A stretch of DNA of 64,000 nucleotides from Xestospongia muta (Eukaryota > Porifera > Demospongiae > Haplosclerida > Petrosiidae): assembly GCA_963693285.1 (NCBI GenBank), contig OY848922.1, positions 2,530,923 to 2,594,922 on the forward strand. The letters run 5' to 3'. A program made the position numbers and the translations under genes. Below the pieces are notes generated by a model, which ran no database searches, was not told the DNA's origin, and saw only the letters and a list, made by a program, of their open reading frames with translations. Numbering within the stretch: the stretch's first letter is position 1; every line of letters begins with the position of its first letter. Of the stretch, positions 30,308 through 48,364 are shown one piece after another.

Positions 30308-30834
30308 ATGGATTCTTCTACTGACCCTACAGCAAATGTATCTAGTAGTAAGTTTGAATAGTAAAATATATAAGACCATCCAATGATCTTTCTTACATAC
30401 AGGGCCACTTTGGTTCCACAAACATATTTCTGACCTAGATGCCACAGCTAATGATGTAATGGAAGCCAACAAGGACCTCAAAGCTGACCATCCTGTAAGA
30501 AAATAACTTAGATTCTTATATCTATAGAATTAATTTTATAGGGTTTTAATGATCAAGTTTATCGCAGAAGAAGAGAGTATTTTGAAAATCTTGCCATAAC
30601 ATTTAAGCAGTGAGAAACAACAACAGTTATCATTTTTTGTTATGTCATTTTTTCATAGTGGTGACCCTATCCCTTGTCCTGAATATACACCAGATGAAAT
30701 TGAAACATGGTAAACTATTAGAAGATGCATGCACGTATATGATATTGTTGTTGATAAAACAACATTGCATGAAATTGAGGAAACTGTGATGTTTTTTGCC
30801 TATATTAAGACATGTACATATAATATGCTAAGTA

Positions 30835-30886
<52 letters not shown>

Positions 30887-32405
30887 CATGCCTATAATAA
30901 AAAATCAGTGAGTGTTTGCTGGTAACTGCTTTTGGTTTAACAGTTTATAACCTAGACCTCCTTTTAAAGCGTAATACATTAAGCCTGCAAATTAAGCATG
31001 TACCACTAAACTTTGTACTCAAATTAAGTAAAAAGGGCGTGACGCGGAATATAGCGAAAGTTAAATCCGAATGGCTTTAAACTAAATTTAGTAGATATAA
31101 TTAATAGTAGGTTTATATAGCCTAGTGCTATATACTATTTGACTTCCTGATGTCATACAATTGAACCAACACAACAATATAATAGCTATATTAGTAATTA
31201 TGTTTGATGTAGCAATTATTAATATTGATGTATAGGAGTACTATCTACAAAGAGTTAACTAAACTCTACCCAACTCATGCTTGCAAAGAATATAACCACA
31301 TCTTCCCTCTATTGGAGAAGCACTGTGGCTACAGGTATATGTTCAGAGGCATATGTGTATGTGTGAATATGATTTCATTTATCCAGTGAGAACACTATTC
31401 CACAGTTAGAAGATGTGTCCAACTTTCTTAAAGGTAATTTCTATTTTTAAAATTATTTCATTGACAATAAACATAGGACAAACTGGATTTCAACTTCGTC
31501 CAGTGGCTGGTCTGTTGTCTCCTCGTGATTTTTTAGCTGGTCTGGCATTTCGTGTTTTCCACTCTACACAATATGTTCGTCATGGATCCAAACCACATTA
31601 TACTCCTGAACCGTAAGTACATCACGTAATTATATGCTAATACATTTGAAATAAATTTTACAGAGATGTCTGTCATGAACTGCTTGGTCATGTTCCATTA
31701 TTTTGTGATCCCAGTTTTGCTGATTTCTCTCAGGTATAAAATGGTTCACATAAATTCATGCAGTCTTTATATACATGCACATCAACACAGGAGATAGGTT
31801 TAGCTTCACTTGGTGCTTGTGATGAAGATGTCGAAAAGCTTGCCCGTGTAAATTATAATAATCGGATTATAAATAAGTGTTTCATTGCATTATAAATAGC
31901 TTTACTGGTTTACTGTGGAGTTTGGTCTGTGTCTTCAAGATGGTGAACGAAAAGCTTATGGAGCTGGAATTCTTTCATCATTTGGTGAACTTCAGGTAAG
32001 TGCATGTCGCGTATAATTGAATTTTAATAAATAGATTCACTTTTTTACTTAATGCAGTATTGTCTGAGTGATGAACCACAAGTGAAAGACCTTGATCTTG
32101 ATAAGGCTTCAGTTACTCCTTATCCTATCACTCAATATCAACCAATATACTTTTTGGCTAATAGTTTTGAAGATGCAAAGAAAAAGATGCGGTTAGTGAT
32201 AATAATGAGCAATATCCATGTATGTACCAAATGTTGTCATTATAGTGAGTGGGGGAGTACTATTAAGAAGCCTTTCCATCTCCAATATATGCCTTGCTAT
32301 GAAAGTGTACAAGTACTTGCTTTGGACAAAGAAGAAAGGAAGAAGCAAATTTCTGCAGGAATTGAGGCCGACAAAGCTGAGCTTGAAGCAATGGAAACCA
32401 ATTAA
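30308..32405 (+). CDS. PAH: Phenylalanine hydroxylase, copy 1 (349 aa, no ACT domain)
   Basis: Twelve exons: 30308-30347, 30403-30494, 30542-30609, 30659-30709, 31236-31334, 31387-31433, 31477-31612, 31664-31733, 31791-31847, 31900-31995, 32058-32191 and 32246-32405. They total 1050 nt with matching phases. The enzyme hydroxylates Phe to Tyr with tetrahydrobiopterin and O2. Visible landmarks are ADHPGFNDQVYR, THACKEYNHIFPLLEKHCGY, FQLRPVAGLLSPRDFLAGLAFRVF (split here: FQLRPVAGLLSPRDFL, AGLAFRVF), HGSKP, HELLGH (iron ligands His182, His187), FTVEFG (iron ligand Glu227, 45 residues on as in human) and AYGAGILSSFGELQYC. GELQYC favours PAH over tyrosine or tryptophan hydroxylase. The N-terminal ACT regulatory domain is absent and the tetramerisation tail is short. 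GFRP follows on the same strand. Confidence 0.9.
30836..30882. repeat. TA microsatellite in PAH copy 1 intron 4
   Basis: An uninterrupted TA run. In copies 2 and 3 a foldback element sits next to the equivalent TA run. Other TA runs occur near 33440-33470, 35650-35694, 38225-38275, 46293-46310 and 48836-48856. Confidence 0.9.
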
Positions 32406-32586
32406 AGTCTTGCTGATTGAACTTATTGATCTTAATATAATATGTACAGCTGCTTTTAATGATATTGCTACAAAGTATAATGTATTGTTTATAGTTTGCT
32501 TGTAATCAGTTATAATTATTATAATGAATATATATTGCTAATTTTAAAATTGTGCAAGGCTAACAAATTTATAGGGAGTAGAGTAG

Positions 32587-45487: not shown

Positions 45488-47831
45488 ATGGATTCTTCTA
45501 CTGACCCTACAGCAAATGTATCTAGTAGTAAGTTTGAATAGTAAAATATATAAGACCATCCAATGATCTTTCTTATATACAGGGCCACTTTGGTTCCACA
45601 AACATATTTCTGACCTAGATGCCACAGCTAATGATGTAATGGAAGCCAACAAGGACCTCAAAGCTGACCATCCTGTAAGAAAATAACTTAGATTCTTATA
45701 TCTATAGATTAATTTTATAGGGTTTTAATGATCAAGTTTATCGCAAAAGAAGAGAGTATTTTGAAAATCTTGCCACAACATTTAAGCAGTGAGAAACAAC
45801 AACAGTTATGATTTTTTGTTATGCCATTTTCCATAGTGGTGACCCTATCCCTCGTGCTGAATATACACCAGATGAAATTAAAACATGGTAAATTATTAGA
45901 AGATGCATGCATGTATATGATATTGTTGTTGATAAAACAAAATTGCATGAAATTGAAGAAACTGTGATGTTTTTTGCCTATATTAAGACATGTACATATA
46001 ATATGCTAAATAGTGTATATATATAATAAATGTGACCATATATACGAAAATGGTACTTAACGCACAAACGAATTTCGAAGAAACGCTTGTATGGAAACGG
46101 TTGCTATGCAGCCATCTTGAACAGGAAGTTATTAAAATTAAGTATGTGACAAGCACAATAATTGACCTATATGAATACCAAATTATATTGATTTCCTGCT
46201 CAAGATGGCCGCGTAGCAACCGTTTATACACAAGCGTTTCTTCGAGATTCGTTTGCGAGTTAAGTACCTACCATTTTCGTATTTATGGTCACATATATAT
46301 ATATATATATGCCTATAATAAAAAATCAGTGAGTGTTTGCTGGTAACTGCTTTTAGTTTAACAGTTTATAACCTAGACCTCCTTTTAAAGTGTAATACAT
46401 TAAGCCTGCAAATTTAGCATGTACCACTAAACTTTGTACTCCAATTAAGTAAAAAGGACGTGATGCGGAATATAGCGAAAGTTAAATCCGAATGGCTTTA
46501 AAACTAAATTTAGTAGATGTAATTAATAGTAGGTTTATATAGCCTAGTGCTATATACTATTTGACTTCACTAATGCCATACAATTGAACCAACACAACAA
46601 TATAATAGCTACATTAGTAATTATGTTTGATGTAGCAATTATTAATATTGATGTATTATAGGAGTACCATCTACAAAGAATTGACTAAACTCTACCCAAC
46701 TCATGCTTGCAAAGAGTATAACCGCATCTTCCCTCTATTAGAGAAGCACTGTGGCTACAGGTATATGTTCAGAAGCATATATGCATGTGTGAATATGATT
46801 TCATTTATGCAGTGAGAACACCATTCCACAGTTAGAAGATGTGTCCAACTTTCTTAAAGGTAATTTTTATTTTTAAAATCATTTCATTGACAATAAACAT
46901 AGGACAAACTGGATTTCAACTTCGTCCAGTGGCTGGTCTGTTGTCTTCTCGTGATTTTTTAGCTGGTCTGGCATTTCGTGTTTTCCACTCTACACAATAT
47001 GTTCGTCATGGATCCAAACCATTTTATACTCCTGAACCGTAAGTACATCATATAATAATATGCTAATACATTTGCAATAAATTTTACAGAGATGTCTGTC
47101 ATGAACTGCTTGGTCATGTTCCATTATTTTGTGATCCCAGTTTTGCTGATTTCTCTCAGGTATAAAATGGTTCATATAAATTCATGCAGTCTCTTTATAC
47201 ATGCACATCAACACAGGAGATGGGTTTAGCTTCACTTGGTGCTTGTGATGAAGATGTCAAAAAGCTTGCCACTGTAAATTATAATAATCGGATTATAAAT
47301 AAGTGTTTCATTGTATTATAAATAGCTTTACTGGTTTACTGTGGAGTTTGGTCTGTGTCTTCAAGATGGTGAACGAAAAGCTTATGGAGCTGGAATTCTT
47401 TCATCATTTGGTGAACTTCAGGTAAGTGCGTGTTGTGTATAATTGAATTTCAATAAATAGATTCACTTCATTACTTTATGCAGTATTGCTTGAGTGATGA
47501 ACCAGAAGTGAGAGACCTTGATCTTAAAGAGGCTTCAGATACTAATTATCCCATCACAACTTATCAACCAATATACTTTTTGGCTAGCAGTTTTGAAGAT
47601 GCAAAGAAAAAGATGGGGTTAGTGATAATAATGAGCAATATTCATGTATGTACCAAATGTTGTCATTATAGTGAGTGGGGGAGTACTATTAAGAAGCCTT
47701 TCCATCTCCAATATATGCCTTGCTATGAAAGTGTACGAGTGCTTGCTTTGGACAAAGAAGAAAGGAAGAAGCAAATTTCTGCAGGAATTGAGGCTGACAA
47801 AGCTGAGCTTGAAGCAATGGAAACCAATTAA
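45488..47831 (+). CDS. PAH: Phenylalanine hydroxylase, copy 3 (349 aa)
   Basis: Twelve exons at 45488-45527, 45583-45674, 45721-45788, 45837-45887, 46662-46760, 46813-46859, 46903-47038, 47090-47159, 47217-47273, 47326-47421, 47484-47617 and 47672-47831, lengths identical to the other copies. Catalytic residues are conserved. At the end of exon 11 a C-to-G change alters the Arg codon that spans the splice junction to Gly (DAKKKM-G against DAKKKM-R). The splice donor itself (GTTAGT) is unchanged. Intron 4 carries the foldback element at 46031-46293. GFRP copy 3 follows. Confidence 0.9.
46031..46293. mobile_element. Foldback MITE in PAH copy 3 intron 4
   Basis: Counterpart of the element at 35392-35650, with the same TGTGACCATA / TATGGTCACA ends and a few bases longer inside. 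It was carried along by the segmental duplication rather than inserted independently. Confidence 0.85.
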
Positions 47832-48053
47832 AGTCTTGATGATTGAACTTATTGATTTTAATATAATATGTACAGCTGCTTTTAGTGATTGCTACAAAGT
47901 ATAATGTATTGTTTATATAGTTTGCTCATAATCAGTTATATTATAATGAATATATATTGCTAATTTTAAAATTGTGCAAGACTAACAAATTTATAGGGAG
48001 TAGAGTAGTATAAAATACCACACAACTTTGTTAAAGCAACATTGACATCACAG

Positions 48054-48364
48054 ATGCCTTACGTAATAATCAGTTCGCTCGTTCGAGTCGAAGCGGGCCC
48101 AACTATTTGTGGAGATGAGTCGAGTGATCCTGAACTAATGAAAGAACTGGGTGCTGAGCTAAAATCTGAACCTGGGAACTTTATGTAAGTTCAGTTGTGC
48201 TTTATTGTTACGTCAACGCATTTTCTCATTATAGGAAGGTGTTTGAATCTCCTGATCCGCCTCGAATTATTCTTAATAAGTTAGAGTTGCTCGGCTATGA
48301 ATTGATTACCTCGTCAGAACTTAATCAGAGACACATCTGGACTCTTCACAAGCCATATAAATAG
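48054..48364 (+). CDS. GCHFR: GFRP, copy 3 (86 aa)
   Basis: Exons 48054-48184 and 48235-48364. The protein keeps all recognisable GFRP blocks (MPYVIISSLVRVE, GDESSDPELMKELG, PPRIILNKLELLGYE, HIWTLHKPYK) and the VFESPDPP form of copy 1. Third-position changes and one Glu-to-Glu-neutral context around GTCGAAGCGGG (Thr to Ala) distinguish it. The TATAAAATA motif and PAH spacing are conserved. Confidence 0.92.

What the first reader, a model, noticed from the sequence alone, without database searches (positions are those of the whole stretch)
30308..48364. PAH and GFRP kept as an adjacent gene pair in three copies
Phenylalanine hydroxylase needs BH4; GFRP lets phenylalanine activate, and BH4 inhibit, the first enzyme of BH4 synthesis. 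Both genes sit on the same strand 220-230 bases apart, and the pair occurs three times with all six ORFs intact. I know of no report of such a pairing in animals. It would link Phe disposal, its cofactor supply and their regulator in one genomic module, a possible operon-like or co-regulated unit.
Basis: partly seen in the sequence, partly recalled or inferred. Interest (0 to 1): 0.88.

Follow-up and report, generated by a model that had tools for sequence, protein, structure and literature searches.

The report
Sponge phenylalanine gene cluster, second copies
A stretch of what is probably a sponge chromosome gathers second, altered copies of four kinds of phenylalanine-handling genes (both halves of the enzyme that loads phenylalanine for protein making, the enzyme that turns it into tyrosine, and a regulator of that enzyme's cofactor supply), while more typical copies sit scattered elsewhere in the genome.

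Summary
In detail: three intact same-strand PAH-GFRP pairs, 226/222/222 bp apart. They are tandem duplicates, so one pairing event. Three facts change the reading. (1) They are second copies: the genome also has a full-length PAH with its regulatory region on C13 and a human-like GFRP on C9. (2) The paired copies are altered where phenylalanine is sensed, or may be: the PAH lacks the ACT domain; the GFRP lost near-invariant residues (G72, G74, T76, T8). Four Phe-binding families are thus duplicated and gathered within 30 kb. PAH and GFRP each carry a TATA element in all three copies, and a 193-bp gap also separates the C13 PAH from a catalase-like ORF, so an operon is not supported, though not excluded. 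Best reading: a specialised Phe cluster of the sponge 'gene bundle' kind, with a Phe-to-Tyr step freed from Phe gating. PheRS active and editing sites look ordinary. Conservation in other sponges could not be tested.

The parts
19408..21625 (-). FARSA': phenylalanine-tRNA ligase alpha subunit, second copy, 12 exons, 497 aa, intact
   Evidence: Model; NCBIfam NF003210 441.5 bits over cut-off 350; Pfam PF01409, PF18552, PF18553, PF18554; 697.4 bits to 3l4g_A; another copy at C7:7965763-7968672
21626..21808 (.). 183-bp head-to-head interval between FARSA' and FARSB' (candidate bidirectional promoter)
21809..24546 (+). FARSB': phenylalanine-tRNA ligase beta subunit, second copy, 20 exons, 587 aa, intact
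   Evidence: Model; TIGR00471 506.5 bits over cut-off 282.65; Pfam PF17759, PF18262, PF03484, PF03483; another copy at C8:8151806-8154981
24453..29805 (+). tandem array (units mostly 841-861 bp) whose units join the FARSB' 3' end to a PAH-promoter-like segment
   Evidence: self-BLAST; FARSB' 3' end (57 nt, up to 6 substitutions) at 24490 (the gene), 26447, 27289, 28131, 28991; PAH1' promoter segment 30073-30258 matched at 24909, 26023, 26865, 27708, 28549, 29410, 83.5-86.0% identity
30308..32405 (+). PAH1': ACT-less phenylalanine hydroxylase, 12 exons, 349 aa
32632..32942 (+). GFRP1': GFRP paralogue, 2 exons, 86 aa, altered 72-76 loop
34849..37220 (+). PAH2': ACT-less phenylalanine hydroxylase
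37443..37753 (+). GFRP2': GFRP paralogue
   Evidence: Pfam PF06399 103.2 bits
45488..47831 (+). PAH3': ACT-less phenylalanine hydroxylase
48054..48364 (+). GFRP3': GFRP paralogue
34395..55402 (.). two ~10.6-kb tandem units (34395-45016 and 45039-55402), each with PAH', GFRP', a Rieske oxygenase and further sequence
40308..42384 (+). Rieske/KshA_C oxygenase B, 473 aa, intact; neighbour carried in the duplicated unit, role in the cluster unproven
   Evidence: model; PF00355 and PF19298

Best explanation
This is a specialised phenylalanine gene cluster: divergent second copies of FARSA, FARSB, PAH and GFRP gathered within about 30 kb on one chromosome, with the PAH-GFRP pair amplified to three copies by tandem duplication. 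Proposed working: PAH' is little more than the catalytic domain, so it should hydroxylate Phe to Tyr without Phe gating (inferred). GFRP' is still a member of the GFRP family but has an altered loop, so it probably regulates GCH1, and hence BH4 supply, with a changed or lost Phe response (inferred). The PheRS' isozyme, whose recalled active-site and editing residues are kept, keeps charging tRNA-Phe where this module drains Phe (inferred, weakest step). PAH' and GFRP' are more likely separately started genes than an operon. Shown: gene content, order, intactness, paralogy, domain loss, residue changes, tandem duplication. Inferred: co-regulation, kinetics, biological purpose.
For: All four families have a copy here and a more typical copy on another contig. 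Bits to the same solved chain, here vs elsewhere: FARSA 697.4 vs 744.7 (3l4g_A); FARSB 806.4 vs 875.6 (3l4g_B); PAH 456.4 vs 555.7 (2pah_A); GFRP 78.7 vs 107.3 (7acc_A). All modelled frames are intact. PAH' has no ACT hit and its alignment to full-length PAH chains starts at their residue 118-119. GFRP' breaks near-invariant positions. PAH1' vs PAH2'/3' dN/dS is 0.49 and 0.52 (not tested against 1). The FARSB'-PAH' junction itself was amplified, so that adjacency predates the array. The best-scoring database PAH, P0004, is also ACT-less and groups with PAH1-3 (support 0.90). Precedent: sponge 'bundles' of repurposed primary-metabolism genes (PMC12833800).
Against: No expression data and no second named species: conservation of the cluster was not testable. 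Other BH4 genes searched (GCH1 on C9; a weak single-exon PTPS match on C12; PCBD on C2) are not in the cluster; SPR and QDPR were not searched. PheRS' shows no clear pocket or editing change, so a special role for it is unproven. dN/dS near 0.5 also fits relaxed selection. Promoters share little. The P0004 grouping is weak evidence: in the core PAH1 is 67.2% identical to P0004 but also 66.0% to C13 PAH, P0004 is closer to C13 PAH (69.5%), and the long-branched C13 second AAAH joins the same clade (0.81). The ACT-remnant search is of limited reach: the ACT-like exon of the divergent C13 AAAH scored only E 0.040 in it, near the window's best of 0.082.
Confidence: 0.5

Rival explanations
1. One reading: a normal Phe-gated module in which GFRP raises BH4 for the neighbouring PAH when Phe rises, transcribed together or co-regulated.
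For: Adjacency and orientation in all three copies; no AATAAA/ATTAAA in the gaps; Q75, W79, R11 and much of the GFRP core kept.
Against: PAH' has no ACT domain; G72, G74, T76 and T8 of GFRP changed; own TATAAAA before GFRP' in 3 of 3 copies; the more typical PAH and GFRP are on different contigs, C13 and C9.
Confidence: 0.15
2. A Phe-derived natural-product or Phe-analogue pathway: PAH' makes a modified Phe/Tyr and FARSA'/FARSB' is a self-resistance PheRS, as resistance copies sit in microbial biosynthetic clusters.
For: A duplicated potential target enzyme beside a duplicated tailoring enzyme; Rieske oxygenases and a P450 read by eye nearby; P407S/A408T beside the recalled Phe-pocket residues N410/Y412; m-tyrosine is misincorporated in place of Phe in plants, which the paper ascribes mainly to organellar PheRS (PMC7069529 passages).
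Against: Recalled PheRS pocket and editing residues are kept; PAH' keeps ordinary PAH motifs; no core scaffold enzyme recognised by eye in the window.
Confidence: 0.15
3. Accident of local duplication: the paralogues came to lie together by chance and are drifting, with no shared role.
For: Single pairing event with tandem copies; repeat-rich intergenic array; dN/dS about 0.5; the Rieske copy at 50.8 kb has lost its start region (read).
Against: Four families that share one ligand in one 30-kb stretch is hard to reach by chance (a rough judgement on an assumed 20-30 thousand genes, not a computed test, and chosen after the fact); all eight reading frames intact.
Confidence: 0.15
4. Part of the copy number is an assembly artefact: the nearly identical units 2 and 3 are two haplotypes placed in tandem.
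For: About 98.5% identity over the long pieces is within plausible heterozygosity (inference); no reads available.
Against: Copies 1 and 2 differ by about 6% and have different flanks, so at least two are real; GFRP2 is closer to GFRP1 (99.0%) than to GFRP3 (97.4%), 3 vs 8 differences in 311 bp, a pattern of exchange among tandem copies.
Confidence: 0.05

Closest known systems
Sponge biosynthetic gene bundles (oro cluster, oroidin; PMC12833800: abstract, sections 8 and 13 and passages seen)
   Same: Copies of common animal primary-metabolism genes collected in one chromosomal region of a sponge
   Different: Different genes; 'phenylalanine', 'hydroxylase' and 'tRNA synthetase' occur 0 times in the paper's main text; no product or assay here, and conservation across species not shown
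Animal phenylalanine hydroxylase (2pah, 6hpo, 6n1k chains)
   Same: Catalytic domain aligned over chain residues 118/119-431/433; metal-ligand and substrate motifs kept (which residues are ligands is recalled)
   Different: No N-terminal ACT domain; the alignment stops at residue 321-332 of 349
GFRP (GCHFR; 1is7, 6z80, 7acc chains)
   Same: Residues 1-83 aligned; Q75, R11, W79 kept
   Different: Near-invariant G72, G74, T76, T8 and F44 (F or Y in 121 of 121) changed; lies beside PAH'
Cytosolic phenylalanine-tRNA ligase (3l4g chains, human by recall)
   Same: Both subunits near full length with the Pfam domains
   Different: Second genomic copies placed head to head beside PAH'; the more typical copies are on two other contigs, C7 and C8
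Bacterial phhA-phhB operon (recalled)
   Same: Phe hydroxylase gene beside a pterin-related helper gene
   Different: There the partner is the dehydratase PCD; here it is GFRP, in separate intron-bearing genes, and the only PCD-family match found is on C2

Membership tests
Phenylalanine hydroxylase (AAAH family) | Biopterin_H catalytic domain with intact motifs | tested here: met
   PF00351 522.2 bits, residues 17-340; CHELLGH and YWFTVEFG motifs in the alignment to 2pah
Animal PAH with allosteric control | N-terminal ACT regulatory domain | tested here: not met
   No ACT hit; alignment starts at chain residue 118-119 of full-length PAH; no ACT-like stretch upstream of PAH' by tblastn, with limited sensitivity to diverged ACT
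GFRP | PF06399 over full length | tested here: met
   105.1 bits over cut-off 25
GFRP | Conserved 72-76 loop (G-x-G-Q-T) | tested here: not met
   E-L-N-Q-R in all three copies; G72 121/121, G74 119/121, Q75 120/121, T76 118/121 in comparators
GFRP | Phe-dependent binding to GCH1 | not testable with these tools
   needs a protein assay
Cytosolic PheRS alpha-beta | Domains of both subunits, full length | tested here: met
Operon (polycistronic unit) | Shared transcript without own promoter for the second gene | tested here: inconclusive
   GFRP' has TATAAAA at -45 in 3 of 3 copies, but no AATAAA/ATTAAA in the gaps; no RNA data
Sponge biosynthetic gene bundle | Co-localised copies of primary-metabolism genes | tested here: met
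   FARSA', FARSB', PAH', GFRP' second copies in 30 kb
Sponge biosynthetic gene bundle | Co-localisation conserved across species and a shown product | not testable with these tools
   no other sponge genome with context was reachable

The most novel reading that the evidence does not exclude
A single-amino-acid gene cluster in an animal: a self-contained Phe pathway with its own ungated hydroxylase, its own cofactor regulator and its own Phe-tRNA synthetase, the synthetase serving to protect translation from the Phe depletion or Phe analogue that the pathway causes.
Probability: 0.2. Interest if true: 0.88.

Novelty: new variant of a known kind. Interest (0 to 1): 0.68.

Why it matters
If the cluster is selected, it shows that an early-branching animal can assemble a themed cluster from spare copies of housekeeping genes, here including an aminoacyl-tRNA synthetase and a regulator that use or sense the same amino acid. 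It would give a natural test of what PAH does without its ACT domain and what GFRP does without its conserved loop, and a concrete locus for finding Phe- or Tyr-derived sponge chemistry. It also corrects the simple story that PAH and GFRP are paired here as a normal Phe-feedback unit.

Tried and rejected
Chance similarity of the ORFs: rejected, families far over cut-off. Overlooked ACT exon upstream: not found; the two tblastn hits with the C13 PAH N-terminus (E 0.082 at 48339-48425 across the end of GFRP3, E 3.8 at 22208-22258 inside FARSB') are not upstream of a PAH'. The intact C13 control scored 8e-64, but the ACT-like exon of the second C13 AAAH only 0.040, so a much diverged remnant could be missed. 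Bacterial origin: not favoured, since the genes carry many introns; the one genome-contig scan (2 patterns, 40 stretches) confirmed a single weak relative, 33% over residues 4-42, not followed. Viral contigs: no relatives in 2 scans. Altered PheRS specificity: recalled Phe-pocket residues N410/Y412 are kept, and the positions of recalled P. horikoshii editing residues S211, D234, T236 carry S, E, T as in the 3l4g chain. P407S/A408T lie beside the pocket, and eight FARSB' changes fall within 243-261, of which R243K, R249K and G257A also occur in the 8s8b chain. Shared promoter motif: only a 12-base TATATAAATGAA between the FARSA-FARSB interval and the PAH1' promoter, weak in such AT-rich DNA; the FARSB' downstream region shares 46 11-mers with the PAH1' promoter because of the repeat array. 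BH4 genes in the cluster: none of three families searched. Flanks: 7 kb on each side showed no Phe gene that I could recognise by eye; wider flanks were not obtained. GFRP Phe-site residues in print: the passages seen in PMC7750480 and PMC3234217 name no GFRP residues. Literature: ten searches showed no title or abstract start about a PAH-GFRP pair or a PheRS cluster in animals; one search listed 20 of 94 papers, the others all they found; the library lacks most subscription journals.
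Full report
What is there. Spliced models give PAH1 30308-32405 / GFRP1 32632-32942, PAH2 34849-37220 / GFRP2 37443-37753 and PAH3 45488-47831 / GFRP3 48054-48364, with 12 and 2 exons, 36 of 36 introns GT-AG, and no broken frame. The gaps are 226, 222 and 222 bp. Pfam assigns PF00351 and PF06399 far over cut-off (copy 1, GFRP2). The window is G000:C6:2530923-2594922 of a 158-Mb, 28-contig genome.

One event, then duplicates. Self-comparison shows copy 1 about 94% identical to the others, and two ~10.6-kb units (34395-45016, 45039-55402) whose four longest matching pieces are 97.6-98.8% identical; shorter pieces are 95.6 and 97.2%, and the last, simple-repeat piece 89.8%. 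In the coding sequence PAH1 differs from PAH2 at 47 of 1050 positions and PAH2 from PAH3 at 9 of 1050. dN/dS is 0.49 and 0.52 for PAH1 vs PAH2 and PAH3, 0.54 for PAH2 vs PAH3; I did not test these against 1. The GFRP gene is more alike between copies 1 and 2 (99.0%) than between 2 and 3 (97.4%), although the gap (95.5 vs 99.1%) and the downstream 300 bp (95.8 vs 98.0%) go the other way, which suggests exchange among copies; the numbers are small (3 vs 8 differences in 311 bp). Three copies therefore do not count as three independent pairings.

These are second copies. The family searches, which give lower bounds, find one more GFRP, on C9 (506751-507094), and two more AAAH genes, on C13. No AAAH match lies on C9, so that GFRP is not paired. 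The C13 gene at 3635866-3637794 is a 453-aa PAH that aligns with full-length PAH chains from their residue 23 on; its N-terminal region matches Pfam ACT just under cut-off (26.9 vs 27 bits). The second C13 gene is divergent (51.9% to PAH1 in the core); its first exons look ACT-like by eye, but Pfam reports no ACT there.

Altered where Phe is sensed. PAH' has 15 residues before the part that aligns, and that part starts at residue 118-119 of the full-length chains. Pfam finds no ACT. A tblastn of the C13 N-terminus gives only E 0.082 (across the end of GFRP3) and E 3.8 (inside FARSB') in the window, none upstream of a PAH'. Its own locus scores 8e-64, but the ACT-like exon of the divergent C13 gene scores only 0.040, so this search would miss a much diverged remnant. 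GFRP' was compared with 121 others (the 120 listed of 289 database proteins found, plus C9 GFRP): G72 in 121 of 121, G74 in 119, T76 in 118 and T8 in 118 are E, N, R and S here, while Q75 (120), R11 (121) and W79 (120) are kept. That this loop touches bound Phe is recalled, not shown; the passages seen say that Phe binds a GFRP pocket near the GCH1 interface (PMC7750480, PMC3234217).

Upstream lie FARSA' (19408-21625, minus) and FARSB' (21809-24546, plus), head to head with 183 bp between start codons, both intact and confirmed by NCBIfam and Pfam. Both have another copy: FARSA on C7 and FARSB on C8; a third PF01409 gene, on C14, is unspliced over the match and probably the mitochondrial enzyme (not modelled). 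In all four families the copy here scores lower against the same solved chain: FARSA 697.4 vs 744.7 bits, FARSB 806.4 vs 875.6, PAH 456.4 vs 555.7, GFRP 78.7 vs 107.3. In a three-way count against the 3l4g chains, FARSA' has 41 unique changes vs 26 for the C7 copy (481 columns), FARSB' 74 vs 48 for the C8 copy (585 columns). Between FARSB' and PAH1' lies an array whose units join the FARSB' 3' end to a PAH-promoter-like segment, so FARSB' and PAH' were neighbours before that amplification. I recognised no other gene from FARSA' to GFRP2' by eye; the intervals were not scanned with Pfam.

Operon or not. PAH' has TATAAA 57-56 bp and GFRP' 45 bp before the ATG in 3 of 3 copies each. Random 100-bp pieces of the window have TATAAA in 12.2%, and in the -70 to -30 range in 4.7%. 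C13 PAH, C9 GFRP, C7 FARSA and C8 FARSB (0 of 4), FARSA'/FARSB' (0 of 2) and Rieske A/B (0 of 2) lack it; the second C13 AAAH could not be judged. The three copies are not independent. The C13 PAH is followed 193 bp later on the same strand by an ORF that I read as catalase, so such spacing is not special. Against this, no AATAAA/ATTAAA lies in the three gaps, while AATAAA lies 195-354 bp after GFRP'. I favour separate transcripts but cannot exclude read-through.

How it most likely works. A PAH without ACT should run without Phe gating; a GFRP with a changed loop should act on GCH1 (one locus found, C9) with a changed Phe response; a PheRS isozyme would keep tRNA-Phe charged. These steps are inferred. 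PheRS' keeps the recalled active-site and editing residues, so I do not claim altered specificity.

Relatives. In a tree of 123 PAH sequences (118 database, 5 own; P0005 and P0006 left out), PAH1-3 group with P0004 (support 0.90), a 330-aa ACT-less protein of unnamed source on a 1322-bp contig. This is weak: in the core PAH1 is 67.2% identical to P0004 and 66.0% to C13 PAH, P0004 is closer to C13 PAH (69.5%), and the divergent C13 gene joins the same clade (0.81). Nine of 123 have fewer than 60 residues before the core: PAH1-3, P0004, P0015, P0061, P0068, P0077 and P0116; some may be partial or alternative isoforms. P0003, a 57-aa ORF on a 1.5-Mb contig, matches 51% of this GFRP at 93%, so the GFRP' type exists in another record. 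I could not view its neighbours, so conservation of the cluster is untested.

Comparison with what is known. The closest described phenomenon is the sponge 'gene bundle', in which orthologues of common primary-metabolism genes are collected and repurposed (PMC12833800; abstract, sections 8 and 13 and passages seen). The content here is different and no product is known. None of the listings from ten paper searches showed a PAH-GFRP pair or PheRS cluster in animals by title or abstract start (one search listed 20 of 94), in a library that lacks most subscription papers.

Verdict. Observation confirmed; interpretation partly supported and redirected: not a normal Phe-feedback pair but part of a cluster of altered second copies of four Phe-binding gene families.

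Noticed in passing
window 15222-18511, 40308-42384, ~50834-52900: Three Rieske/KshA_C oxygenases (Neverland/DAF-36-like, recalled; Pfam run on B only). A and B are intact; the third lacks the stretch holding the start codon. First exons of A and B are ~94% alike but a later exon only ~78%, a mosaic pattern.
   Followed up: partly
window 24453-29805: Tandem array with six PAH-promoter-like segments, mostly 841-861 bp apart, joined to copies of the FARSB' 3' end.
   Followed up: partly
window 34300-34590 and 45030-45230: Foldback element with inverted ends just upstream of PAH2' (read by eye); a truncated copy with a short filler marks the junction of the 10.6-kb tandem duplication upstream of PAH3'.
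   Followed up: no
window 35377-35703 and 45981-46309: Inverted-repeat insert of about 330 bp in the fourth intron of PAH2' and PAH3', absent from the shorter intron of PAH1'.
   Followed up: no
window ~2270-10030 (minus) and L058: Tandem immunoglobulin-like cell-surface genes on the minus strand, repeated in the flank (read by eye).
   Followed up: no
window ~61170-63640 and L057 5188-5843: Cytochrome P450 gene pieces, with a further copy of the C-terminal part in the flank (read by eye).
   Followed up: no
L038, C13:3648049-3649967: A divergent second AAAH about 10 kb from the C13 PAH, with ACT-like first exons (by eye) and a long branch.
   Followed up: partly
window intron 11 of PAH' (32192-32245 and equivalents): A 54-bp in-frame intron without stops, so its retention would add 18 residues.
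   Followed up: no
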